A stretch of 64,000 nt of DNA from Rhodospirillaceae bacterium (GTDB taxonomy: Bacteria; Pseudomonadota; Alphaproteobacteria; MPNO01; UBA2964), in the NCBI GenBank assembly GCA_002709075.1, contig PAPV01000015.1, positions 1 through 64,000 of the forward strand. Reading direction: 5' to 3'. Made by a program: the position numbers and the translations under genes. Under the pieces are notes generated by a model. The model did no database searches and was not told the DNA's origin. It saw nothing but the letters and a program-made list of their open reading frames with translations. Below, piece by piece: positions 18,213 to 60,041 of this stretch (position 1 is the first letter of the stretch; the number at the start of each line of letters is the position of its first letter).

Positions 18213-18461
18213 GAACCGAAAAGTTAAATGTAAATAAAAAACAAATGTTTAATAACAAATATTTGACATCTTTCCTAATGAAAAATAACTATATAAACAT
18301 AATACTAGGTAGTTCTTACGTTGAAAAAATTGTATAAGCTCACTTATTTTTGTTGACGAGTCAAACAGGGGAAAAAATGATCAAAATAATGCTATAAAAA
18401 CAATAAAATTAATGTTCAAGGAACAACTTACTGAAAAACTAATTAAACAATCGGTGTAAGA

Positions 18462-18770
18462 ATGGTAAAAATATTAATGAAGCTCATTTTCATGGTGTTT
18501 TTTGTCACCGCCGTAACTAATTCTGTTTCTGCACAAGGAAAGATGACTGACCAGTACCGTCAAATGGGAGGCATAGCTGCCCTAGCGGAAATGTGTTTGA
18601 ATCAAAAAAGATTGGAAAATCAATTATTCAAATCTGTTGGGATAACAGTCGCCAACAATCCAAAGATGGGAAGAATGCTCTTTCAGTTGATGGCACTTTA
18701 TTTCGAGAGTTATGAGGTGGCCAAAAAAAAGAGTTGTATGGAGTGGATCCGCACAGAACTACAACAATAA
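18462..18770 (+). pseudogene. Secreted small protein, copy 1 (frameshifted and truncated paralog)
   Basis: The 102-residue frame begins with a signal peptide ending ...SVSAQG and then the conserved GKMTDQYRQMGGIAAL. It is nearly identical to the gene at 20680-21078 up to residue about 87. There, an A run is two bases shorter than in copy 2, the frame shifts, and the product ends in KSCMEWIRTELQQ. If copy 2's frame is followed further, a TAA also replaces an AAA codon, while homology continues at DNA level to about 18860. Copy 1 is therefore probably decaying, though a short secreted product could still be made. Confidence 0.65.
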
Positions 18771-18870
18771 ACAATTTAACTGTAAATCAATATCAGATCT
18801 TACTTTAATTTAAAGATTTGAAGCTCAGATGTTTAAGCAATTAGCATCGACAAAATAAAAATGTTTTAAG

Positions 18871-19185
18871 ATGAAGAAAAATATAATTATTGGTTTTCTG
18901 ATACTGGTCCCTATCATTGTTGCTCCTGTTGTGTATTTCCAACACGACAGGATTGAAAATTTATTTAGTTCACAGACTGCAGATTGGAACTCTCTGGTTA
19001 AAAGGAATGGTTTGTATTACCAGAAATTCACTGAAGAACCCTTTACTGGTAAGGTTACTGGTGAACAACGTGGAAAAATAGCTAATGGTAAGACAGACGG
19101 AACATTCGTCGTTTACCGTGCTGATGGCTCAAAGCATGTCCGTGAGTCGGGTGTCTATCGTAAGAATAAGAAAGTCTCAGATTAG
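18871..19185 (+). CDS. Short YwqK/MORN-like exported protein, copy 1
   Basis: A 104-residue protein with an N-terminal membrane segment (NIIIGFLILVPIIVAPVVYF), then NGLYYQKFTEEPFTGKVTGE, the entry segment of YwqK-type repeat proteins, and only about two repeat units. Copy 2 at 21091-21576 has the same entry and end but more repeats. The stop is followed two bases later by the ATG of the 65-residue membrane protein. Function unknown; repeats of this type are usually surface or periplasmic. Confidence 0.7.
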   Translation: MKKNIIIGFLILVPIIVAPVVYFQHDRIENLFSSQTADWNSLVKRNGLYYQKFTEEPFTGKVTGEQRGKIANGKTDGTFVVYRADGSKHVRESGVYRKNKKVSD

Positions 19186-19187
19186 AA

Positions 19188-19385
19188 ATGGTTTCTTTCT
19201 CTCTACTTGAGTCACTTATGCTTGAAATCATTGGAGCAATCGTCGTGTGGATTATATCTTATTTTTCATTACCCCAAATCATGAAGCTCTATTCCTCTGA
19301 AGTAGATAAGAAGGCTGTTAATCCTGTTCAGAAAATTAACTTCGGAACCATCAATGCAATCTTATTCCTTGTATTAATTAAGTAG
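19188..19385 (+). CDS. Small membrane protein of the duplicated cassette, copy 1
   Basis: A 65-residue protein with an N-terminal hydrophobic helix (LEIIGAIVVWIISYFSLPQI), a polar middle and a short hydrophobic end (INAILFLVLIK). It differs from the copy at 21579-21776 at only a handful of residues, so purifying selection or very recent duplication is likely. Two bases separate it from the preceding stop, which indicates translational coupling. No recognised family. Confidence 0.65.
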   Translation: MVSFSLLESLMLEIIGAIVVWIISYFSLPQIMKLYSSEVDKKAVNPVQKINFGTINAILFLVLIK

Positions 19386-19394
19386 TGAGACACA

Positions 19395-19422
19395 AATTTC
19401 TCTAAATTTAATGGTAGAAATT
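19395..19422 (+). terminator. Hairpin after cassette copy 1
   Basis: The arms AATTTCT and AGAAATT are perfect complements around a 14-base loop, and the hairpin is followed by TCTTTCATAC. The same structure follows copy 2 at 21787-21811, where the loop sequence has changed but the arms are kept. Conservation of the arms supports a real end-of-transcript structure; the stem is short and AT-rich. Confidence 0.4.
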
Positions 19423-19446
19423 CTTTCATACTGTGGGAAGTGAAAT

Positions 19447-19463
19447 CTCATCAGTAATGCGAG
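19447..19463. repeat. Short palindromic repeat, copy 1 of 3
   Basis: CTCATCAGTAATGCGAG followed by TTGTTATTGTTG. The element recurs at 21836 and 23651, where the arms CTCAT and ATGAG are perfect. Here the right arm region has one extra change. It could be an operator, a recombination site or a trace of duplication. Confidence 0.5.
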
Positions 19464-19525
19464 TTGTTATTGTTGTTGACTATTATACAACGTGAAAACT
19501 GCAGTAATAAGTTTCTAAACTGTTT

Positions 19526-19801
19526 TTATCCAGTCTGCTTCGCTAAATATTTTTCATCTGCACCGTTGTAATTAAAGGCTATAGCCTTCTCAATTTTACG
19601 ACCAAAATGCGAATAAGCTCATGCTCCAGTTGCACAAACGCCAGTTATTAAGTAATTCAAATCAAGCCCTTGTGTTGAGATTTCCTGTCCTTTCTCAAAA
19701 ACCCGAGCTTCACAAGCTTTACGTTTTTCATAGAGAAAAGAGCCAGTGTGTCGAATTTTTTCTTTTAATACTTGATTAGGAGTTGGATCTTTGGATGACA
19801 A
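19526..19801 (-). pseudogene. Possible gene remnant with an internal stop
   Basis: On the minus strand a frame begins with TTG at 19801 and runs for 60 codons, with protein-like composition (SFLYEKRKACEARVFEKGQE), to a TGA at 19619-19621. The same frame then continues for about 30 codons (AYSHFGRKIEKAIAFNYNG) to a TAA at 19526-19528. No ribosome-binding site or ATG is seen, and the start overlaps the promoter side of the lipoprotein gene. It may be a fragment of an older gene of the element. The rest of 19386-19806 holds only the hairpin and palindrome listed separately. Confidence 0.35.
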
Positions 19802-19806
19802 TTATT

Positions 19807-20163
19807 ATGAAAAAATTTAATAAAACATTTTTGACTATTTTAATCTCGATCCTGATTGTTTCTTGTGATGACACTGACGTAATTGTACAAATATTTGGTG
19901 CATATGAATATAACTGCACGACAGATGAATATAGAGTTTTAAACAAAAACATTATCTTACCATTCATGGAGAAAAATAAGTGGTATAACAAAGAAGAATT
20001 TCATGAAGCTCATATTGAGCATGCATTAAAACCCTTTAAAGACCTTCCTATGAACGATAGTTCTCTTGCTAAGATTACACCTACTCGTGAGTTAAGTGAG
20101 GCAATGTTAGGAGAAATAGTTATGAAAGTGGATTGTGCAAATCCACGAGATATAAAGTTTTAG
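19807..20163 (+). CDS. Predicted small lipoprotein
   Basis: A 118-residue protein starting MKKFNKTFLTILISILIVSC, a signal with a lipobox-like end (IVSC) that would be lipidated at the Cys. The mature part contains two further Cys (EYNCTTDEY and KVDCANP) that could form a disulfide. The ATG at 19807 is preferred over an upstream in-frame ATG because it places the charged n-region correctly. It lies between the two cassette copies. No known family recognised. Confidence 0.65.
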   Translation: MKKFNKTFLTILISILIVSCDDTDVIVQIFGAYEYNCTTDEYRVLNKNIILPFMEKNKWYNKEEFHEAHIEHALKPFKDLPMNDSSLAKITPTRELSEAMLGEIVMKVDCANPRDIKF

Positions 20164-20324
20164 ATGGTAAAAATGCTCCCACTTTTTAATATAATAAATG
20201 AAGCTGTAGAATTGATGAGCTTAAGTTTCGGGTTTCTCATCAAAATCTAAGAACAGGTTGTCCCGTGAGGAAATAATTTTAACATTGAGCAATATGATCA
20301 AATTATCTGAAAGGAATTATCAAA

Positions 20325-20624
20325 ATGATTTTTTACGTTGAGTATCAATGTGATCGTGACAAGCAGTCAGAAGCTCAAACTTTTTTTGCTAACATGACAG
20401 AAGAGCAAATCGTTGGAGAAACACCAAATGGGCTCCGTTTAATCTGCCGATATCACGATCTTCCAAATGGTTCTGGGTTTGCTGTTGTTGAAACAAATTC
20501 TCAAGATGCAATAACGGCTTGGGCACTGACATGGTCTGGGCTCTGTACATTTCCCGTTATTAAGCCGGTAGTCGATGATGATACGGGAAGAAAAATGATC
20601 AAAGAAATGTTGCAAAACCAATAG
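20325..20624 (+). CDS. Small DUF3303-like (dimeric alpha-beta barrel) protein
   Basis: A 99-residue cytoplasmic protein. The pattern MIFYVEYQCDRDKQSEAQTFF, then ETPNGLRLICRYHDLPNGSGFAVVETNS, then AITAWALTWSGLCTFPVIKPV, resembles the DUF3303/ferredoxin-like barrel group, which is usually dimeric. AAAGGA lies nine bases before the ATG. Family assignment is by general pattern only, and the function is unknown. It is transcribed in the same direction as the cassettes on either side. Confidence 0.6.
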   Translation: MIFYVEYQCDRDKQSEAQTFFANMTEEQIVGETPNGLRLICRYHDLPNGSGFAVVETNSQDAITAWALTWSGLCTFPVIKPVVDDDTGRKMIKEMLQNQ

Positions 20625-20679
20625 AGTCGTTATTTGAAGAAGAGCTTACTGAAGAGGTTATTAGATGATAGGTGACAGA

Positions 20680-21078
20680 ATGATTAAAATTATAATGCAA
20701 TCTATTTTTATTGTATTTTTTGCCACTACCTTATCCAGTTCAGTTTTTGCACAGGGAAAGATGACTGACCAGTACCGTCAAATGGGAGGTATAGCTGCTC
20801 TATCAGAGATGTGTTTGAATCAAAAAAGGTTGGAAAATCAATTATTCAAATCTGTTGGGATGACAGTTGCCAACAATCCAAAGATAGGAAGAGTGCTCTT
20901 TCAGCTGATGGCACTTTATTTCGAGAGTTATGAGGTGGCCAAAACAAAAAGAGTTGTATGGAGTGGATCGGCACAGAACTACAACAAAAAACAATTTAAC
21001 TGTAAATCAAAATCAGATCTAACTTTAATTAAAAGATTTGAAGCTCAAATGTTTAAGCAATTAGCATCGACAAAATAA
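20680..21078 (+). CDS. Secreted small protein, copy 2 (intact)
   Basis: A 132-residue exported protein: signal peptide ending SSSVFAQG, then the conserved GKMTDQYRQMGGIAALSEMC, and a C-terminal part YNKKQFNCKSKSDLTLIKRFE that is missing from copy 1. Two Cys (MCLNQ and FNCKS) could pair in the periplasm. The ATG at 20680 is chosen because AGGTGA lies five bases before it, and it aligns with the start of copy 1; an upstream ATG at 20665 lacks such a site. It heads the second three-gene cassette. No family name recognised. Confidence 0.7.
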   Translation: MIKIIMQSIFIVFFATTLSSSVFAQGKMTDQYRQMGGIAALSEMCLNQKRLENQLFKSVGMTVANNPKIGRVLFQLMALYFESYEVAKTKRVVWSGSAQNYNKKQFNCKSKSDLTLIKRFEAQMFKQLASTK

Positions 21079-21090
21079 AAATGTTTTAAG

Positions 21091-21576
21091 ATGACGAAAA
21101 ATATCATCATACCTCTGGTTCTAATGTGCCTTATGTCATTCCCTAGTTGGGGTGAGACCAAAGACGACTTGGTTCAACGAGAAGGTCTGTATTACCAGAA
21201 ATTCACTGATGTTCCGTTTACGGGTGAAGTTGAAGGTGAATGGAAAGGTTCAATCAAAAACGGTCTGAAAGAAGGACCGTGGGTCACTTACTACGACAAC
21301 GGTCAGTTACGTTACAAGGGTGACTACAAGAACGGTTACCAAGAAGGAACGTGGGTTCATTACCTCCTCAACGGTCAGTTACGTTACAAGGGTAACTACA
21401 AGAACGTTAAGAAAGAAGGAACGTGGGTTTATTATTCCCTCCTCAACGGTCAGTTAATAAGACAGGGTAACTACAAGAACGGTAAGAAAGAAGGAAGGTG
21501 GGAGTCCTACGACTTTAACGGAAAGTCAGACGAAGATGCAGGAACCTATCGTGACGGTAAGAAAGTATCGGATTAG
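21091..21576 (+). CDS. YwqK/MORN-like exported repeat protein, copy 2
   Basis: A 161-residue protein with signal peptide MTKNIIIPLVLMCLMSFPSW, the NGLYYQKFTDVPFTGEVEGE entry segment, and about four repeats of the form GxxKxGxWxxYxxNGQLRYKGxYKNG. Such repeats form a beta-sheet ladder; the family includes YwqK-type antitoxin-like proteins and many uncharacterised secreted proteins. Copy 1 keeps the ends but has lost, or never gained, the middle repeats. Stop and next ATG are two bases apart. Confidence 0.75.
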   Translation: MTKNIIIPLVLMCLMSFPSWGETKDDLVQREGLYYQKFTDVPFTGEVEGEWKGSIKNGLKEGPWVTYYDNGQLRYKGDYKNGYQEGTWVHYLLNGQLRYKGNYKNVKKEGTWVYYSLLNGQLIRQGNYKNGKKEGRWESYDFNGKSDEDAGTYRDGKKVSD

Positions 21577-21578
21577 AA

Positions 21579-21776
21579 ATGGTTTCTTTCTCTCTACTTG
21601 AGTCACTTATGCTTGAAATAATTGGAGCAATCTTCGTATGGGTTATATCTTATTTTTTATTACCCCAAATCATGAAGCTTTATTCCTCTGAAGTAGATAA
21701 GAAGACTGTTAATCCTGTTCAGAAAATTAACTTTGGAACCATCAATGCCATCTTATTCCTTGTATTAATTAAGTAG
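21579..21776 (+). CDS. Small membrane protein of the duplicated cassette, copy 2
   Basis: A 65-residue protein almost identical to the one at 19188-19385, with an N-terminal hydrophobic helix and a C-terminal hydrophobic tail. The substitutions are conservative (for example IVVWIISYFSL to IFVWVISYFLL), which suggests selection for a membrane segment. Same two-base spacing from the YwqK-like stop. Function unknown; it might anchor or help export its upstream partner. Confidence 0.65.
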   Translation: MVSFSLLESLMLEIIGAIFVWVISYFLLPQIMKLYSSEVDKKTVNPVQKINFGTINAILFLVLIK

Positions 21777-21786
21777 TGAGACACAT

Positions 21787-21811
21787 ATTTCTCTAACTTA
21801 GAGGTAGAAAT
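21787..21811 (+). terminator. Hairpin after cassette copy 2
   Basis: The arms ATTTCT and AGAAAT flank a 13-base loop and are followed by TCTTTCATAC. Counterpart of the hairpin at 19395-19422. Confidence 0.4.
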
Positions 21812-21835
21812 TCTTTCATACTTGGTCTGTAAAAA

Positions 21836-21850
21836 CTCATCAGTAATGAG
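21836..21850. repeat. Short palindromic repeat, copy 2 of 3
   Basis: CTCATCAGTAATGAG, a perfect 5-base inverted repeat with a 5-base spacer, followed by AGTGGTG. It lies between the cassette hairpin and the end of the convergent polymerase-like gene. Confidence 0.5.
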
Positions 21851-21876
21851 AGTGGTGTTTATATTGGTTATTATTA

Positions 21877-23454
21877 TTATTGATAATTGAAGGTTCTCTC
21901 CTTCCACTCTTCAAAGGACTTAAGATCATCAAGATATCTTTGACTTACATATTCATTATCTTTCATCGACATAATTTCTCTGTGCCTTTCCCCCCCTCCT
22001 TCTTCTTCATAATCAATTTCTTCATCAAAATATCCTATCTGTTTAGTCTTCACCGAATTGGGTATGCTAGCCCCAAACACGTCCTCTACTAATTTATTAT
22101 TAGAAAGACCACTAAGCTCTCTCCATGCCTCATTCATAACCTCCCGAAGATCATCAGCATGTTCTTCCCATATTATGTAAGAGTCATGAACAGCCAATAC
22201 AGGAATACCATCAGCCATAAACTCAGTAATAATAACTTCTATAATTTGACTATCGAGATATTGAAGCTCTATTCCTTTTCCTGTTCCAATTAAATCAGCA
22301 ATAGGCTCATGCTTGGCTCTCAGTGCATCCAAAGCCTCACCCAATACTTGGTGTGTAAAGACACTTTTAAGATCTTTGTTACCTAAAACATGGTCACTAA
22401 TAAATGCCCGAAAGGCTGCCTCATCACTCTCAGCATTAATGGCAATTAAGAGTAGATCTTTCAGATAATTCCTTTGCCATATGATGTGATTATCATCTGT
22501 TTTTATTTCATAAGGATCAGATGCTATTTCCTGCCAGTAGTTAATTCCCTTTTTTGCATAGAGCAGTGCCGGATGATGGGAAGAGTAATCCACCTCAATC
22601 GTTCTTCTGCCACTAACACGAATGAAAGGTCTATAGATGGAAGGTATGGCTTGCCAAAAGCCCCCGTAGAACCTTCCTCCGTGATCCCATCTGTTATTGT
22701 TGAAGACACGATGGGTAAATTTATCATGCTGATTGATGTACGTTCTCTTCAGTCTTCCTGTTCGTTTATCTTTTTCTTTGTGTTTAACCCATGGATTATC
22801 TGTGTTGCTTAGATCAATATGATGTTGCCCTAGCAGTAAATTGTAATTTAACAACACCCCTCTCATTCTGTCTGTCTCAGGAGTGTCTTCGTACTCGATA
22901 TTTTCTTGTAATGTATTTCCCCTGATATCCTCAGTCTTGATCCTCATAATGATGGGTTCATAGCTTCTTAATCTTTTGTCGGCTGGTTTCCTGAGAGCAT
23001 AGCTAATATCAAACTTATTGATCTTTGCATCTTTAAAGTACTGGATAAGTTTTGATGTGGTTTTCATTCGTGAGTTACGAGAAGCTCTGCCCTTGTCATG
23101 GAACCCCTTAACCATATCAACCAGATCAACATCAGAGAGGTGCTTTACGATGAGCCCTGTCTTGTCACTAATTCTAAGTGTGTTGTATCGGGAGTTTGCC
23201 TTGTAATAGCCACTACCCATGTAAAACCCGATACACATCTCAGGATCAGTCATCCATGCTACATAAAGATCGATTAGGACCTTTTTCAGAGCATGTTTTT
23301 CAATGCCTGTGAGTGAAGAAAATCCTTCAAAATAAGAGGTGTAAATAATATCTACAAATTTATTTACCTCGGGATGGTCTGACCAAGTGTGGACATCTAA
23401 TTGACGAGAATGGTTCAAAGACCACGGTGCATCTTTTGCTTTGTATAGTGCCAT
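21877..23454 (-). CDS. Polymerase-like protein of a mobile element (family A / single-subunit palm motifs)
   Basis: A 525-residue protein not assignable to a named family with certainty. The C-terminal half carries, in order, a conserved GGRFYGGFWQAIP segment (about 259-271), IEVDYSSHHPALLYA (D289, like motif A), RNYLKDLLLIAINA (R328, K332, like the O-helix motif B) and VLAVHDSYII (H423, D424, like motif C). This is the order and spacing style of family A DNA polymerases and T7-like RNA polymerases. No exonuclease domain is evident; the N-terminal ~250 residues are of unknown role. The tail is acidic (EEIDYEEEGGG). ATG at 23454 is preferred to the TTG 15 bases upstream. It shares the strand with the integrase; both belong to the tRNA-Val element. 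Priming or element replication is inferred. Confidence 0.7.
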   Translation of the reverse strand: MALYKAKDAPWSLNHSRQLDVHTWSDHPEVNKFVDIIYTSYFEGFSSLTGIEKHALKKVLIDLYVAWMTDPEMCIGFYMGSGYYKANSRYNTLRISDKTGLIVKHLSDVDLVDMVKGFHDKGRASRNSRMKTTSKLIQYFKDAKINKFDISYALRKPADKRLRSYEPIIMRIKTEDIRGNTLQENIEYEDTPETDRMRGVLLNYNLLLGQHHIDLSNTDNPWVKHKEKDKRTGRLKRTYINQHDKFTHRVFNNNRWDHGGRFYGGFWQAIPSIYRPFIRVSGRRTIEVDYSSHHPALLYAKKGINYWQEIASDPYEIKTDDNHIIWQRNYLKDLLLIAINAESDEAAFRAFISDHVLGNKDLKSVFTHQVLGEALDALRAKHEPIADLIGTGKGIELQYLDSQIIEVIITEFMADGIPVLAVHDSYIIWEEHADDLREVMNEAWRELSGLSNNKLVEDVFGASIPNSVKTKQIGYFDEEIDYEEEGGGERHREIMSMKDNEYVSQRYLDDLKSFEEWKERTFNYQ

Positions 23455-23650
23455 GCCGTTATTTCTCAATAGCTTTTAATCAAACTAACCAAGGGACTAT
23501 TCTAAACCAAATCACGGTGATTCGTGTAGCTTATCGAATAATTTTTATCTGTTTAATTGGAAAAGTAGACCCAATGACGACGACCTCATCAAGCCTCATC
23601 ATCACTTATTCAAAGTAATAATTAAGAAATATTTCTTGGGATTAAAAAAA

Positions 23651-23665
23651 CTCATCAGTAATGAG
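23651..23665. repeat. Short palindromic repeat, copy 3 of 3
   Basis: CTCATCAGTAATGAG followed by AGTTGTTGTTG. It lies in the divergent region between the polymerase-like gene and the MORN-protease gene, where an operator would be expected. Confidence 0.5.
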
Positions 23666-23762
23666 AGTTGTTGTTGTCTCTTCCACAGTAAAGGTTATTC
23701 TTAATATAGTTCTAATAGCACCTTCATTGAATTATAGTTTGATTTGATACATACTCATCACC

Positions 23763-25139
23763 ATGAAAAATAGAACCATCCTAATCTTTTTGAGTTTTTC
23801 TTTTCTCTTGAGCAATGAGTTAAGAGCATCAGAGTTGCCTCCGTGCCCAAATGATAAAACTTCATACCGTCATAACTGCTTCGGGACCGAAACCTTTGCC
23901 AATGGAGAAAAATACGTTGGTGAATTTAAGAATGGCAGAAGACATGGAAGAGGCACCTATACCTTTGTCAGGGGAAATAAATACGTTGGTGAATTTAAGA
24001 ATAACAAAATGCATGGAAAAGGCACCCATACCTTTGCCAGTGGAAATAAATACGTCGGTGAATGGAGGGATAACAAAAGACATGGAAAAGGCACCACTAC
24101 CTTTGTCAGTGGAAATAAATACGTTGGTGAATTTAAGAATGACACAAGACATGGAAGAGGCACCTATACCTATGCCAGTGGAAGTAAATACGTTGGTGGA
24201 TTTAAGAATGGCAGAAGACATGGAAGAGGCACCTATACCTCTGCCAATGGAGATAAATACGTAGGGGAATTTAAGAATAGCAAAATGCATGGAAGAGGCA
24301 TTGCCAGCTCTGCCGATGGAAGAAAAAAAGAAGGTATTTGGAAAGATGGTAAGTTCCTATATGCCCAGAAAATAAACCCAAATCTTACAGCACAAAAACC
24401 CCGACCTAAAAGACGGAAACGTCAATCTTTTAAAAAATCTGTAGATCCCAACAAAATTGTCTCGGCAGCTTCCGGAACAGGCTTTGCCGTGTCATCCAAA
24501 GGACATGTGATTACCAACCATCATGTTATTAAGGGATGTCAAAAAGTAAAAATTCATCAAGATGGTAAAGCTATTCCTGCCACTGTCGTGACGTATGATC
24601 CCCAAAATGATCTGGCTCTTCTAAAAGGTGACTTCCGTCCCTCAGTTGTACTTAGTCTCAGTCCAAGAAACTCTGGACTGCTTGAGGAGATTTACGTAGC
24701 TGGATTTCCTTTTGGACAGAAAGTCAGTACCGGGGTTAAAGTCACAAAAGGTATTGTCAGTTCACTGACAGGTATTGGAAATAACTTCTCCCAAATCCAA
24801 ATCGATGCAGCCCTGCAACCCGGCAATAGTGGTGGTCCTATAATAAATGGTAAAGGTAATGTCGTTGGAGTTGCTGTAGCCAAGTTGGACTTTAAAAATA
24901 TCTTAAAGAGATTTGGTACACTGCCTGAGGATACGAACTTTGGTGTAAAAACAAGCATCGTAAAAACCATATTGGAGAGTAAAAACATCTCCACACCGAG
25001 AGCTAATAAATCATTAATCTCAACAGCCAAGCTTGGTGAAATGATTACAAAGGGGACGTACTATCTCTCTTGTTGGATGACGATAGCACAAATCCAAAGC
25101 ATAAAATCTCAGAAAGTTATTTTTCAAAATTTAAATTAA
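23763..25139 (+). CDS. MORN-repeat / trypsin-like serine protease fusion, exported
   Basis: A 458-residue protein: signal peptide (residues 1 to about 23), a short Cys-containing segment, six full 23-residue MORN repeats plus one degenerate repeat (about 48-200), a basic linker (PRPKRRKRQSFKK), and a trypsin/HtrA-like protease domain (about 235-430). The catalytic triad is visible as H254 (ITNHHVI), D283 (DPQNDLALL) and S356 (QPGNSGGP). No PDZ domain follows. The C terminus YYLSCWMTIAQIQS is a tail I associate with MORN-proteases of marine Alphaproteobacteria. MORN repeats may bind lipid or target protein and place the protease at the envelope. It is cargo of the tRNA-Val element. Confidence 0.85.
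   Translation: MKNRTILIFLSFSFLLSNELRASELPPCPNDKTSYRHNCFGTETFANGEKYVGEFKNGRRHGRGTYTFVRGNKYVGEFKNNKMHGKGTHTFASGNKYVGEWRDNKRHGKGTTTFVSGNKYVGEFKNDTRHGRGTYTYASGSKYVGGFKNGRRHGRGTYTSANGDKYVGEFKNSKMHGRGIASSADGRKKEGIWKDGKFLYAQKINPNLTAQKPRPKRRKRQSFKKSVDPNKIVSAASGTGFAVSSKGHVITNHHVIKGCQKVKIHQDGKAIPATVVTYDPQNDLALLKGDFRPSVVLSLSPRNSGLLEEIYVAGFPFGQKVSTGVKVTKGIVSSLTGIGNNFSQIQIDAALQPGNSGGPIINGKGNVVGVAVAKLDFKNILKRFGTLPEDTNFGVKTSIVKTILESKNISTPRANKSLISTAKLGEMITKGTYYLSCWMTIAQIQSIKSQKVIFQNLN
23904..24317 (+). repeat. Six tandem 69-bp repeats encoding MORN units
   Basis: Each unit encodes GxKYVGEFKNxxxHGxGTxTxxx. The units are very similar at DNA level, including silent positions (AAATACGTTGGTGAATTTAA recurs), so they arose by recent tandem duplication and may vary in number between strains. 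A seventh, degenerate unit follows. Confidence 0.85.
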
Positions 25140-25141
25140 AT

Positions 25142-25158
25142 AATTACTTAAGGTAATT
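25142..25158. terminator. Small hairpin between protease and integrase genes
   Basis: AATTAC and GTAATT pair around TTAAG, immediately after the protease stop, followed on the plus strand by AAAAG and on the minus strand by more AT-rich DNA. The two neighbouring genes are convergent, so a bidirectional terminator is possible, but the stem is weak. Confidence 0.3.
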
Positions 25159-25259
25159 AAAAGAGTCCTATAATGATATAACCTCCTTCCTAAGGAGAAA
25201 CTGTCTACCATCCACATACCAACAGTATTTTTTTTAAGTATTAATCCTTTTTTATTTCT

Positions 25260-26228
25260 TTACCCTAACTTCAAGGCCAAATCTTCTGCTCTAAGATGGG
25301 TGTATCTTTTCAACATCCGTAAATCCTTGTGACCTGTAATCGTTGATACCTCCATCACATTAAGACCTCGTTCAAAGAACCTGCTCGTGGCCTCATGCCT
25401 CAAATCATGAAAACGTAAATCATCTATCCCTGCCCTCTTACAGGCTCTTTTCCACAAACCTCTTAATGCCGTTGTTGATAAAGGAAATACTCTTCCAGAA
25501 ATATTAGCTGGTAACTCTTCTAATGTCTTTATGGCTTTGGAGGACAAAGGAACCGTCCTCCTCTCTCCATTTTTTGTGAGAGGTAAATAAGCTGTTCGAG
25601 ACTGATAATAAATATGGTTTCGTTGCAGTGTGAGCAACTCACCACGTCTCATGGCTGTCTCTAAAGCAACAATGACCAACGGAAAAAGATATGAGTTGTG
25701 GCTCCGGCTACAGGCTAGCAAAAGGCCTTCAGCTTCATCCCTCCCCAACCGTCTATCTCTTGGTCTGTTCGAGGGAGGCTTTGTAACCAAACTAACGGGA
25801 TTTTCCGTCAATCGAATATTCCATTCCCTCATAGCTGTATTAATGGCATCAGAGATTAAACTCAAGTCTCTGGCTGCAGCATTGCCTTGGACAACTTTTA
25901 ATCTCTCATCTCTATATTGAGCAATGTGAAAAGATCTTAAATCAGTTAAAGGAATTTTTCCTAACCACGATCGGTTTATTTTTTTTATCCTAAGGATTTC
26001 TATCTCAAAAGAACGTTTATTGGGTGTAATTTCTTTCCCATATCTCTTAAGTAACTCCCCAAGGGTTCCTTCAGCAAAAGAGAATTGACCAGTAGCCATG
26101 GCCCTCTCTGTCGTCTCTGCCCATTTCTTTGCATCGGATTTATACTGGAAATTTTTCACCTTAGTGGGGTAATTCTTTCGTCTGACACGAGCTTGATAGC
26201 CCCCTTTTATCTTCATAATGGAAGACAT
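25260..26228 (-). CDS. Tyrosine recombinase / phage-type integrase
   Basis: A 322-residue site-specific recombinase. The N-terminal part has an Arm-DNA-binding-like start (KIKGGYQARVRRKNYPTKVK) and a SAM-like core-binding domain. The catalytic domain has all the expected residues: R194 (TAMRRGEL), K219 (LTKNGERR), H274 and R277 (FHDLRHEA), H300 (TGHKD) and Y309 (LKRYTHL). It lies 100 bases from the 3' end of the tRNA-Val gene on the same strand, the usual place for an integrase that uses the tRNA end as its attachment site. It is intact and probably active. Confidence 0.93.
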   Translation of the reverse strand: MSSIMKIKGGYQARVRRKNYPTKVKNFQYKSDAKKWAETTERAMATGQFSFAEGTLGELLKRYGKEITPNKRSFEIEILRIKKINRSWLGKIPLTDLRSFHIAQYRDERLKVVQGNAAARDLSLISDAINTAMREWNIRLTENPVSLVTKPPSNRPRDRRLGRDEAEGLLLACSRSHNSYLFPLVIVALETAMRRGELLTLQRNHIYYQSRTAYLPLTKNGERRTVPLSSKAIKTLEELPANISGRVFPLSTTALRGLWKRACKRAGIDDLRFHDLRHEATSRFFERGLNVMEVSTITGHKDLRMLKRYTHLRAEDLALKLG

Positions 26229-26290
26229 TTTTTGACTCCTATTGGAGCTATAGTGGAGTAATTAATATGGGAAATAAAAGATTATCATTC

Positions 26291-26322
26291 CTAAGATATA
26301 CTAACCTATTGATATATCTTAG
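26291..26322. repeat. Inverted repeat between integrase and tRNA-Val
   Basis: CTAAGATATA and TATATCTTAG are perfect 10-base complements with a 12-base spacer, ending six bases before the tRNA CCA. It may be a terminator for the tRNA, an integrase arm site or part of the attachment site. Confidence 0.6.
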
Positions 26323-26328
26323 AAAAAG

Positions 26329-26403
26329 TGGTGGGCACGACTGGGATTGAACCAGTGACCCCTACGATGTCAACGTAGTGCTCTCCCGCTGAGCTACGCG
26401 CCC
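26329..26403 (-). tRNA. tRNA-Val (GAC)
   Basis: On the minus strand the gene starts GGGCGCGTAGCTCAGCGGG and folds into a full cloverleaf: the 7-bp acceptor GGGCGCG pairs with CGTGCCC (one G-U), the anticodon stem CTACG/CGTAG encloses the loop TTGACAT with anticodon GAC, and the T-arm is CACTGGTTCAATCCCAGT. The 3' CCA is encoded. The 3' end faces the integrase, so this gene is the likely attachment site of the neighbouring element and has been kept functional. Confidence 0.95.
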
Positions 26404-58621: not shown

Positions 58622-59851
58622 TTATGAACGATAGTCTGAATTGATCCGGATGTAATCATGTGTAAGATCACAGGTCCAAACGGTTTTTTTACTATAACCA
58701 ATACCTACATCAACACTAATATTCACCTCAGTTCCTTTTAAATGATTATTGACCGATTTTTCGTCATATTCGCTGACAGCAAATCCATTTTCAGCAACCT
58801 TAATTCCACCAATCATGATCGTCATCTTATCCCGGTTGGCTCTTTCCCCTGCTTTGCCCACTGCCATTACAATACGACCCCAGTTTGCATCAGCTCCAGC
58901 GATAGCAGTTTTTACCAGTGGTGAGTTGGCAATAGATAATGCAATAGCTTTTGCAGCAGTTTTAGTATCCGCACCAGTTACAGTCACAGAAATGAATTTC
59001 GAAGCCCCTTCCCCATCTTTTACAACCTGATGAGCGAGATCAAGCGTTAGCGCATCTAAAGCCTTCCTAAAATCTCTCAGTTTTGGGTCAGTTGCAGATT
59101 TGCATGAGAAGTTTTTAATCATCCCTGTCGCAAAAAGTAAAACTGTGTCACTTGTTGATGTATCACCATCAACAGTTATAGCATTGAATGATTTGTCCAC
59201 GGCAGATTTTAGGCATGTCTGCAGAACTCTGCTCTCAATTTTTGCATCAGTAAATATAAAAGAGAGCATTGTCGCCATATCCGGAGCTATCATTCCTGAT
59301 CCCTTCGAAATGCCGCATAGTGTTACTTGCTTAAAACCAATCTTTGCCTTTGCAACAGACACTTTTGGGAATGTGTCAGTAGTCATAATTGCTCTTGCAG
59401 AATTAGCCCATCCAGTTGGCTTTAATTTCCTAGCAAGACTCGGCAGAAATGATGTAAGACGTTCTACCGGCAATGGTTCACCTATAACCCCAGTTGAGGA
59501 CACAAAAACTTCATCAAGATTACATCCTATCAACTCAGCTACCACACATGCTGTTTTTCTTACTGCCAGGTCACCGCGTCGTCCAGTAAAGGCATTAGCA
59601 TTTCCGGAATTTACAACCAGAGCCCTAGCTGAACCACTTTTAAGAGATTTTTTACACCAATTTACTGGCGCAGCTGCGGTTCGTGACTTTGTAAATGTCC
59701 CAGCAACGGTAGTACCCATATCAAATACCGCGAGCATAACATCACGCCGGTTAATGTAACGCAAACCACAAATACCGCTTGCTATATTGACCCCGCCAAC
59801 TGACGGTGCCTTGGGTAATTTTTTTGGAGCCAATGGCGATTTTGTTGTCAT
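58622..59851 (-). CDS. argJ: Bifunctional ornithine acetyltransferase / N-acetylglutamate synthase
   Basis: A 409-residue Ntn-fold enzyme of arginine synthesis. Autocleavage is expected before the Thr of PDMATMLSFIF; ITVDGDTSTSDTVLL and GADANWGRIVMAVG are family motifs. The ATG at 59851 (AGG seven bases upstream) gives the standard N terminus; the frame is open for 68 more codons towards secA, but that part does not resemble ArgJ. The 190 bases up to secA should hold divergent promoters. Confidence 0.94.
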   Translation of the reverse strand: MTTKSPLAPKKLPKAPSVGGVNIASGICGLRYINRRDVMLAVFDMGTTVAGTFTKSRTAAAPVNWCKKSLKSGSARALVVNSGNANAFTGRRGDLAVRKTACVVAELIGCNLDEVFVSSTGVIGEPLPVERLTSFLPSLARKLKPTGWANSARAIMTTDTFPKVSVAKAKIGFKQVTLCGISKGSGMIAPDMATMLSFIFTDAKIESRVLQTCLKSAVDKSFNAITVDGDTSTSDTVLLFATGMIKNFSCKSATDPKLRDFRKALDALTLDLAHQVVKDGEGASKFISVTVTGADTKTAAKAIALSIANSPLVKTAIAGADANWGRIVMAVGKAGERANRDKMTIMIGGIKVAENGFAVSEYDEKSVNNHLKGTEVNISVDVGIGYSKKTVWTCDLTHDYIRINSDYRS

Positions 59852-60041
59852 ATCTTTACCTGTAAAATAGACCGAAACAGAAATTATACGCCTAACGCTA
59901 GATATTTTAGAACAATAAACCGACTTCATCACTATACAGAGTGTATTGACAGACTGACATGGTATGCCTATGTGTCGATGCTCATTTATATGGTAAATAG
60001 TCCTTCGGCAAGGACCCGCCCACATAGGAAGAGTATGGGTC

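What the first reader, a model, noticed from the sequence alone, without database searches (positions are those of the whole stretch)
21877..26403. tRNA-Val element with a family A-like polymerase protein and a tyrosine integrase
The sequence shows an intact integrase beside the 3' end of tRNA-Val and, on the same strand, a 525-residue protein with motif A-like DYSSHHPALLYA, motif B-like RNYLKDLLLIAINA and motif C-like VHDSYI. The order A-B-C, with an Asp in A, Arg/Lys in B and HD in C, is that of family A DNA polymerases and T7-like RNA polymerases. Pipolins are known elements with a tRNA site, a tyrosine recombinase and a primer-independent family B polymerase; this would be an analogous element with a different polymerase fold. 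Self-replication or priming is inference. The His in motif A and the HDS form of motif C lean towards the RNA-polymerase side.
Basis: partly seen in the sequence, partly recalled or inferred. Interest (0 to 1): 0.75.

Follow-up and report, generated by a model that had tools for sequence, protein, structure and literature searches.

The report
tRNA-integrated element with TV-Pol polymerase
A bacterial mobile DNA segment sits next to a tRNA-Val gene and carries its own integrase and its own small DNA polymerase, of a type (TV-Pol) predicted in 2008 but hardly studied; hundreds of relatives in marine bacteria and phages, including the cholera phage ICP1, show that this integrase-polymerase pairing is a widespread way for small elements to move and probably copy themselves.

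Summary
The 525-530 aa protein (21877-23469, minus) keeps its family-A catalytic residues across 100 diverse relatives: D294, K337, H428-D429, R266 and R280 in all, R333 in 98. A confident AlphaFold model (pLDDT 89, pTM 0.89) matches only family A DNA polymerases among its best 50 PDB hits. An intact tyrosine integrase lies between it and the 3' end of tRNA-Val.

Relatives confirm the pairing: 31 of 34 genome loci with more than 9 kb on both sides hold a tyrosine integrase (about 1 expected), many between direct repeats of a tRNA end.

The kind is not new. It fits TV-Pol (Iyer et al. 2008), predicted primase-polymerases of integrase- or resolvase-bearing elements. The RNA-polymerase leaning is not supported. 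Most likely the protein primes and/or copies the excised element; activity is inferred, and the window element's far end was not found.

Two features in relatives seem undescribed: (i) a ~3.4 kb integrase+polymerase unit in three near-identical copies on one contig; (ii) in one Rhodobacteraceae clade, the polymerase gene bracketed by 245-492 bp inverted repeats, mostly starting at the 17-nt tRNA-Gln 3' end. These are the parts worth pursuing.

The parts
26329..26403 (-). tRNA-Val (GAC), integration site; the element lies on its 3' side
   Evidence: ARAGORN; the 5' side (N-formylglutamate amidohydrolase and following genes) is syntenic in G003, G004, G007, G010 and G011, the 3' side differs in each
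25260..26228 (-). tyrosine integrase, 322 aa, intact catalytic domain
   Evidence: PF00589 E=1.5e-27, phrog_1 E=9.5e-57
21877..23469 (-). TV-Pol-like family A polymerase gene (530 aa from TTG; probable ATG start at 23454, 525 aa)
   Evidence: phrog_4756 E=7.5e-50; AF2 model and Foldseek; invariant catalytic residues
22663..22680 (-). GGRFYG (residues 264-269), beta-strand with the invariant Arg266 expected to contact the template
   Evidence: 100/100 conserved; strand in the model
22555..22590 (-). motif A DYSSHHPALLYA (residues 294-305), Asp294 at strand end, His299 at D+5
   Evidence: D294 100/100, H299 90/100
22435..22473 (-). motif B R333xxxK337xxxxxxxN345 (fingers helix)
   Evidence: R 98/100, K 100/100, N 95/100; helix 333-345 in the model
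22174..22191 (-). motif C VHDSYI (residues 427-432), beta-hairpin with Asp429
   Evidence: H428 and D429 100/100; strands 425-427 and 430-434
22861..23424 (-). N-terminal domain (residues about 16-203), alpha/beta, tentatively winged-helix-like
   Evidence: AF2 pLDDT 85; Foldseek only non-significant hits (E>=0.12), several of them HTH regulators and one Rep-DNA complex
23763..25139 (+). cargo: MORN repeats fused to a trypsin-like protease
   Evidence: PF02493 E=7.8e-45, PF13365 E=4.5e-29
18373..21877 (+). probable cargo region with a partly duplicated gene group (18373-19486 and 20591-21877, MORN_2 and small secreted proteins); the element's far end lies in or before it, unresolved
   Evidence: repeats D2-D4, self-BLAST, PF07661
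21832..21862 (.). repeated palindromic motif (CTCATTACTGATGAGTTTT on the minus strand), terminator-like, at the polymerase 3' end; further copies at 19443-19473 and 23647-23677
   Evidence: family D6; same motif at the 3' ends of POL and INT in the closest relative L181

Best explanation
The stretch is an integrative element inserted at the 3' end of tRNA-Val. Its core is a tyrosine integrase (excision/insertion at the tRNA end; inferred from family and position) and a TV-Pol: a small, exonuclease-less family A polymerase with palm, fingers, thumb and an extra N-terminal domain. Most likely the integrase excises the element as a circle and the TV-Pol primes and/or extends DNA synthesis on it, giving the element its own replication or priming function; other genes between tRNA and polymerase are cargo. 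Shown: sequence, fold, conservation, context. Inferred: catalytic activity, primer independence, dNTP use, replication of the element.
For: 100/100 conservation of the two metal-binding Asp, the motif B Lys and the template Arg. AF2 model pLDDT 89.4, pTM 0.89; all of the 50 best PDB matches are family A DNA polymerases, best E=1.1e-4, and viral matches include a protein annotated 'DNA polymerase' in a Rheinheimera phage. Integrase within 10 kb in 31 of 34 well-flanked genome loci, against about 0.035 per 20 kb from 315 PF00589 hits in 177.7 Mb (p about 3e-42). Direct repeats of a tRNA end enclose INT+POL in many relatives, e.g. L043, L046, L048, L051, L089, L107, L115. L107 is a 3.25 kb element with INT, one more gene and an N-terminally shortened POL. 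L151 carries three 99.5-99.97% identical copies of a ~3.4 kb INT+POL unit. The closest relative (82% identity) has a 59-nt copy of the tRNA-Val 3' end about 300 bp beyond its POL. Family precedent: TV-Pol prediction (PMC2579912) and primer-independent synthesis by the proposed TV-Pol member CcPol with MP (PMC7581432, PMC10061031).
Against: No copy of the tRNA-Val end was found at the far side in the window and no clean empty site could be set up, so the window's own element is not delimited. No helicase, SSB or relaxase family appears among the 25 families shown for 109 proteins of the window region and bounded elements (59 families matched in all), unlike D5-linked TV-Pols and CcPol-MP. Glu710 and Tyr766 of PolA are replaced by His299 and Asn345. 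Profile links to PolA are weak (hhalign E 0.003-0.3) and HMMER does not connect the family with the putative TV-Pol of phage Ma-LMM01. No activity was measured.
Confidence: 0.72

Rival explanations
1. The protein is a single-subunit (T7-like) RNA polymerase that transcribes the element or makes RNA primers.
For: Motif C reads HDS as in T7 RNAP; weak PHROG hits to RNA polymerases (phrog_2051 in 6 of 20 members, best E=0.006); one weak Pfam RNA_pol hit (E=0.13); hhalign aligns only the HDSF stretch.
Against: His299 where T7 RNAP needs Gly542, Asn345 where it has Tyr639 (residue roles from established knowledge); GR motif to motif A spacing is PolA-like; all of the 50 best PDB fold matches are DNA polymerases.
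Confidence: 0.08
2. The protein is a defence or stress enzyme carried as cargo (for example an untemplated or abortive-infection polymerase, as Abi reverse transcriptases are), not a replication protein.
For: Occurs in islands at integration hot spots and in lytic phages, without replication partners nearby; cargo of such islands includes restriction genes.
Against: Near-constant partner of the integrase (31/34) and present with it in minimal units (L107, L151), while cargo changes from element to element; no PADLOC model matches the window protein.
Confidence: 0.13
3. The protein serves the integration step itself: it repairs or copies the att junctions (gap filling, fold-back copying of ends) rather than replicating the whole element.
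For: Constant pairing with the integrase and lack of an evident helicase; in the Rhodobacteraceae clade near-perfect inverted repeats mostly start at the att core and copy 245-492 bp, in places including part of the polymerase gene itself.
Against: Long inverted repeats are limited to one clade (12 of 28 loci, 1 of 102 elsewhere) and absent from the window; phage relatives mostly lack an integrase nearby (6 of 51).
Confidence: 0.15
4. The element in the window is a dead remnant and the gene a relic.
For: Far att repeat missing; duplicated and rearranged flanking genes; the relative G010 holds only a pol fragment and an integrase remnant.
Against: Both window ORFs are full length with all catalytic residues, and POL is 82% identical to an intact relative.
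Confidence: 0.15

Closest known systems
TV-Pol family (Iyer, Abhiman and Aravind 2008, PMC2579912)
   Same: Minimal family A core without exonuclease: beta-hairpin Arg, two Asp, fingers Asp plus RxxxK, helical thumb; found in mobile elements of alphaproteobacteria with lambda-type integrases. The putative TV-Pol of phage Ma-LMM01, gp030 (my assignment), shares His at D+5 and Asn at K+8.
   Different: No D5 helicase family was seen in the searched elements; the N-terminal domain is predicted alpha/beta rather than all-helical; direct sequence linkage to gp030 is only at motif level.
CcPol-MP primase of SCCmec (PMC7581432, PMC10061031)
   Same: Family A polymerase encoded by an integrative element, without proofreading.
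   Different: CcPol is close to Pol I (keeps E710 and F762 equivalents), works with an OB-fold SSB and a helicase, and its elements mostly use serine recombinases.
Pipolins (PMC7385651, PMC9710591)
   Same: Integrative elements encoding their own polymerase; tRNA site and tyrosine recombinase.
   Different: Pipolins use a family B polymerase (piPolB).
DNA polymerase I (Pfam PF00476)
   Same: Fold and order of motifs; GR motif to motif A spacing.
   Different: No exonuclease domains; His299 and Asn345 replace Glu710 and Tyr766; not recognised by the Pfam model.
PHROG 4756 (phage proteins of unknown function; ICP1 gp100 is a relative)
   Same: Homologous over residues 102-458; relatives of the protein in 127 phage records, mostly Vibrio and Aeromonas phages.
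   Different: Phage relatives are mostly shorter (about 370-470 aa in IMG/VR) and mostly lack an integrase nearby.

Membership tests
TV-Pol | two catalytic Asp in a family A palm | tested here: met
   D294 and D429, 100/100; fold
TV-Pol | beta-hairpin with an absolutely conserved Arg | tested here: met
   R266 100/100, strand 264-268
TV-Pol | fingers with a conserved Asp and RxxxK | tested here: met
   D318 97/100, R333 98/100, K337 100/100
TV-Pol | coiled-coil thumb before the palm | tested here: inconclusive
   long helix 197-214 in the model, geometry not measured
TV-Pol | no nuclease domain | tested here: met
   no exonuclease family in any of 20 members
TV-Pol | located in mobile elements with integrase/resolvase or a D5 helicase | tested here: met
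   integrase in 31/34 loci; no helicase among the 25 families shown of 59 for 109 cargo proteins
TV-Pol | profile-level similarity to founding members | tested here: inconclusive
   Ma-LMM01 gp030 is the top-ranked ORF of that phage in hhalign, aligning with the region of the Arg hairpin and motif A, but not significant; HMMER negative
TV-Pol | primase and polymerase activity | not testable with these tools
   prediction in the 2008 paper; biochemical data in the papers read only for CcPol
Family A DNA polymerase (PolA) | fold of palm/fingers/thumb | tested here: met
   Foldseek best E=1.1e-4, all of the 50 best PDB matches
Family A DNA polymerase (PolA) | Glu at D+5 and Tyr at K+8 | tested here: not met
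   His299 90/100, Asn345 95/100
T7-like RNA polymerase | Gly at D+5 and Tyr at K+8 | tested here: not met
T7-like RNA polymerase | HDS motif C | tested here: met
   S430 in 95/100
Pipolin | primer-independent family B polymerase | tested here: not met
   family A fold
PolA-SSB primase (CcPol-MP) | adjacent OB-fold SSB and helicase genes | tested here: inconclusive
   no SSB or helicase family among those shown; OB folds of divergent small proteins were not modelled

The most novel reading that the evidence does not exclude
In tRNA-Gln elements of one Rhodobacteraceae clade the TV-Pol gene forms a module bracketed by 245-492 bp near-perfect inverted repeats, whose outer ends in most cases coincide with the 17-nt tRNA 3' end (att core). 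In L074, L079 and L106 a second inverted-repeat module holds the integrase, and the modules share the core in alternating orientation. The arms can include part of the pol coding sequence, so one end was copied onto the other. The most novel reading is that the element-encoded polymerase, primed at the tRNA-derived core (by fold-back of a processed end, or even by the host tRNA 3' end), copies and keeps identical the ends of an invertible module: a replication/recombination cycle not described for tyrosine-integrase elements.
Probability: 0.15. Interest if true: 0.85.

Novelty: new member of a known kind. Interest (0 to 1): 0.5.

Why it matters
TV-Pols were predicted in 2008 to be combined primase-polymerases of small mobile elements, yet in the papers found only the outlying member CcPol-MP has been assayed. 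The loci collected here give compact objects for a direct test: a ~3.4 kb unit holding essentially INT and POL (L151), a 3.25 kb element (L107, POL N-terminally shortened), and well-bounded 7-15 kb elements in cultivable roseobacters. They also give an identity to a family that Pfam does not recognise and PHROGs lists as unknown, including ICP1 gp100. If the polymerase primes de novo, it would be a further solution to the priming problem, with His/Asn at the positions that decide sugar choice in PolA and T7 RNAP.

Tried and rejected
tRNA-end repeat as far att site in the window: none beyond chance matches. Empty-site reconstruction from relatives: the 3' side of tRNA-Val differs in every relative, so no clean comparison. 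Sequence search of PDB with the protein and with the alignment: no hits. Direct HMM link to Ma-LMM01, T7 and PolA: not significant. First integrase detection by regex found none because the pattern was too strict; replaced by a profile. First peptide scan of viral contigs with the single protein: nothing. N-terminal domain as a known Rep or winged helix: only insignificant fold hits. Defence-system models: nothing for the window protein. Reading the palindromic repeats (D6) as integron-like attC sites: they look more like terminators (hairpin plus T run at the 3' end of POL in the window and of POL and INT in L181), although the copy at 23647 does not fit that.
Full report
What is there. tRNA-Val(GAC) is at 26329-26403 on the minus strand. 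On its 3' side follow, on the same strand, a tyrosine integrase (25260-26228; PF00589 E=1.5e-27) and a 525-530 aa protein (21877-23469); between them, on the plus strand, lies a MORN-repeat/trypsin-like protease gene.

The motifs are real. Relatives were collected from genomes of the family and class, 339 matches in the GTDB contigs, of which 79 distinct loci were kept, 51 viral contigs and 127 phage records. In a 100-sequence alignment the invariant columns are G265, R266, R280, D294, K337, L425, H428 and D429. R333 is 98/100, D318 97/100, N345 95/100, H299 90/100. An AlphaFold2 model on that alignment has pLDDT 89.4 and pTM 0.89. All of its 50 best PDB matches are family A DNA polymerases (Klenow, Bst, KlenTaq, apicoplast, pol nu and theta; best E=1.1e-4), and the best viral matches are unnamed phage proteins (E down to 4e-24) plus a Rheinheimera phage 'DNA polymerase'. 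TM-scores over the full length are low (0.2-0.3); in the tighter alignments about 270-300 columns are matched. Pfam, NCBIfam and sequence search of the PDB do not recognise the family.

Which polymerase. The spacing of the GR motif to motif A (28 residues) resembles PolA. At the two positions that control ribose selection in PolA and T7 RNAP (E710/G542 and Y766/Y639, established knowledge) the family has His299 and Asn345. The same pair, His at D+5 and Asn at K+8, is readable in gp030 of cyanophage Ma-LMM01 (YDVVKCHATI, KTAVLAVIN). That phage was reported to carry a TV-Pol element; gp030 lies next to two transposase genes and was the phage's best ORF against the family profile, aligned in the region of the Arg hairpin and motif A. 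The score was not significant, so gp030 as the TV-Pol is my assignment. CcPol, another proposed TV-Pol, keeps E710 and F762 (PMC7581432). The published TV-Pol features (hairpin Arg, two Asp, fingers Asp, RxxxK, no nuclease; PMC2579912) are met, so I file the protein as TV-Pol-like, with profile-level linkage open.

Mobile element. Of 34 genome loci with more than 9 kb on both sides of the polymerase, 31 hold a full-length tyrosine integrase. The background is 315 PF00589 matches in 177.7 Mb of 57 genomes of the class, 0.035 per 20 kb (p about 3e-42). Many loci show a tRNA gene whose end is repeated on the other side of INT+POL: tRNA-Val (L039, L041, L043, L045, L090, L107), tRNA-Thr (L046, L049, L081), tRNA-Leu (L048, L051, L089, L115), tRNA-Gln (L074, L078, L079, L085, L103, L106) and others. 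Cargo differs (proteases, cyclases, Sel1 repeats, restriction-modification); no helicase or relaxase is among the 25 commonest Pfam families shown for 109 proteins from the window region and these elements (59 families matched, so a rare one could be missed). L107 is only 3.25 kb (INT, one gene, a POL lacking its N-terminal part). Viral contig L151 has three copies, 99.5-99.97% identical, of a ~3.4 kb unit containing POL and a 215-aa integrase, two of them adjacent.

The window's own copy. The closest relative (82%, L037/L181) ends with a 59-nt copy of the tRNA-Val 3' end some 300 bp beyond POL. In the window no such copy exists; POL is instead followed by a duplicated gene group (18373-21877) with MORN_2 cargo like that in the bounded element L045. 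The 5' side of tRNA-Val is syntenic in five relatives and the 3' side is different in each, as expected of an insertion hot spot; G003 has another 8 kb island between two tRNA-Val copies. So the near end is secure and the far end unresolved. The same genome has a second, longer copy of the gene on contig C2.

Mechanism. The best-supported account is integrase-mediated excision plus TV-Pol-mediated priming and/or synthesis on the excised element. The fold, residues and pairing are shown; activity, primer independence and replication are inferred from the family, chiefly from CcPol-MP, which makes DNA de novo but only with its SSB partner. The lack of an evident helicase or SSB is the main reason for keeping the junction-repair rival.

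A second layer in relatives. In a Rhodobacteraceae clade of 28 sequences (support 0.96), 12 loci have inverted repeats of at least 200 bp and 90% identity, against 1 of 102 other loci. In most tRNA-Gln cases with POL inside, the outer ends coincide with nt 59-75 of tRNA-Gln, TCCTACCACCCCAGCCA or a one-base variant; L087, L088, L092 and L080 deviate or lack a tRNA in reach. The arms contain pairs of GCCCC-like repeats about 55-75 nt from the core, possibly integrase arm sites (inference). POL points away from the tRNA in L076, L079, L091, L103 and L106 and towards it in L072, L074 and L094. In L074, L079 and L106 a further inverted repeat encloses the integrase, the modules sharing the core in alternating orientation; L113 shows two such modules, one with an integrase, at another core. 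The arms overlap coding sequence in several loci, so they arose by copying one end. Inversion by the integrase is the simple reading of the orientations; the identity of the arms needs gene conversion or fold-back synthesis. I found no description in the held literature, which lacks most subscription papers. The window element has no such repeats.

Verdict. Interest rests on an untested enzyme family made directly testable and on the inverted-repeat modules.

Noticed in passing
L072, L074, L076, L079, L080, L087, L088, L091, L092, L094, L103, L106 (also L086 at 85%, L065): Polymerase gene bracketed by long, mostly 92-100% identical inverted repeats, in most tRNA-Gln loci starting at the 17-nt tRNA 3' end; polymerase orientation relative to the tRNA differs between loci.
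   Followed up: partly
L074, L079, L106, L113: Arrays of inverted-repeat modules (one holding the integrase) sharing a 16-17 nt tRNA-derived core in alternating orientation.
   Followed up: partly
L151:1-11746: Three 99.5-99.97% identical copies of a ~3.4 kb unit with POL and a 215-aa integrase on one viral contig, two of them adjacent.
   Followed up: yes
L294:4286-5953 (ICP1 MW794146 58285-59952): ICP1 gp100, annotated hypothetical, is a relative of this polymerase (tblastn match 59071-59913).
   Followed up: partly
L183:7989-9935 (G000 contig C2): Second, 648-aa copy of the polymerase gene in the same genome, with no integrase seen in the 12.9 kb fetched.
   Followed up: partly
L181:6340-14789: In relative G003 one integrase is flanked by two polymerase genes; the first is interrupted.
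   Followed up: no
L182:3926-11951: An 8 kb island with its own integrase and three large ORFs lies between two tRNA-Val copies in relative G003: the same hot spot with other cargo.
   Followed up: no
window 19443-19473, 21832-21862, 23647-23677: Palindromic 26-31 bp repeat, terminator-like at gene 3' ends, but one copy sits between divergent genes.
   Followed up: partly
window 18373-19486 and 20591-21877: Direct duplication of a small gene group (77-94% identity in pieces) beside the polymerase gene.
   Followed up: no
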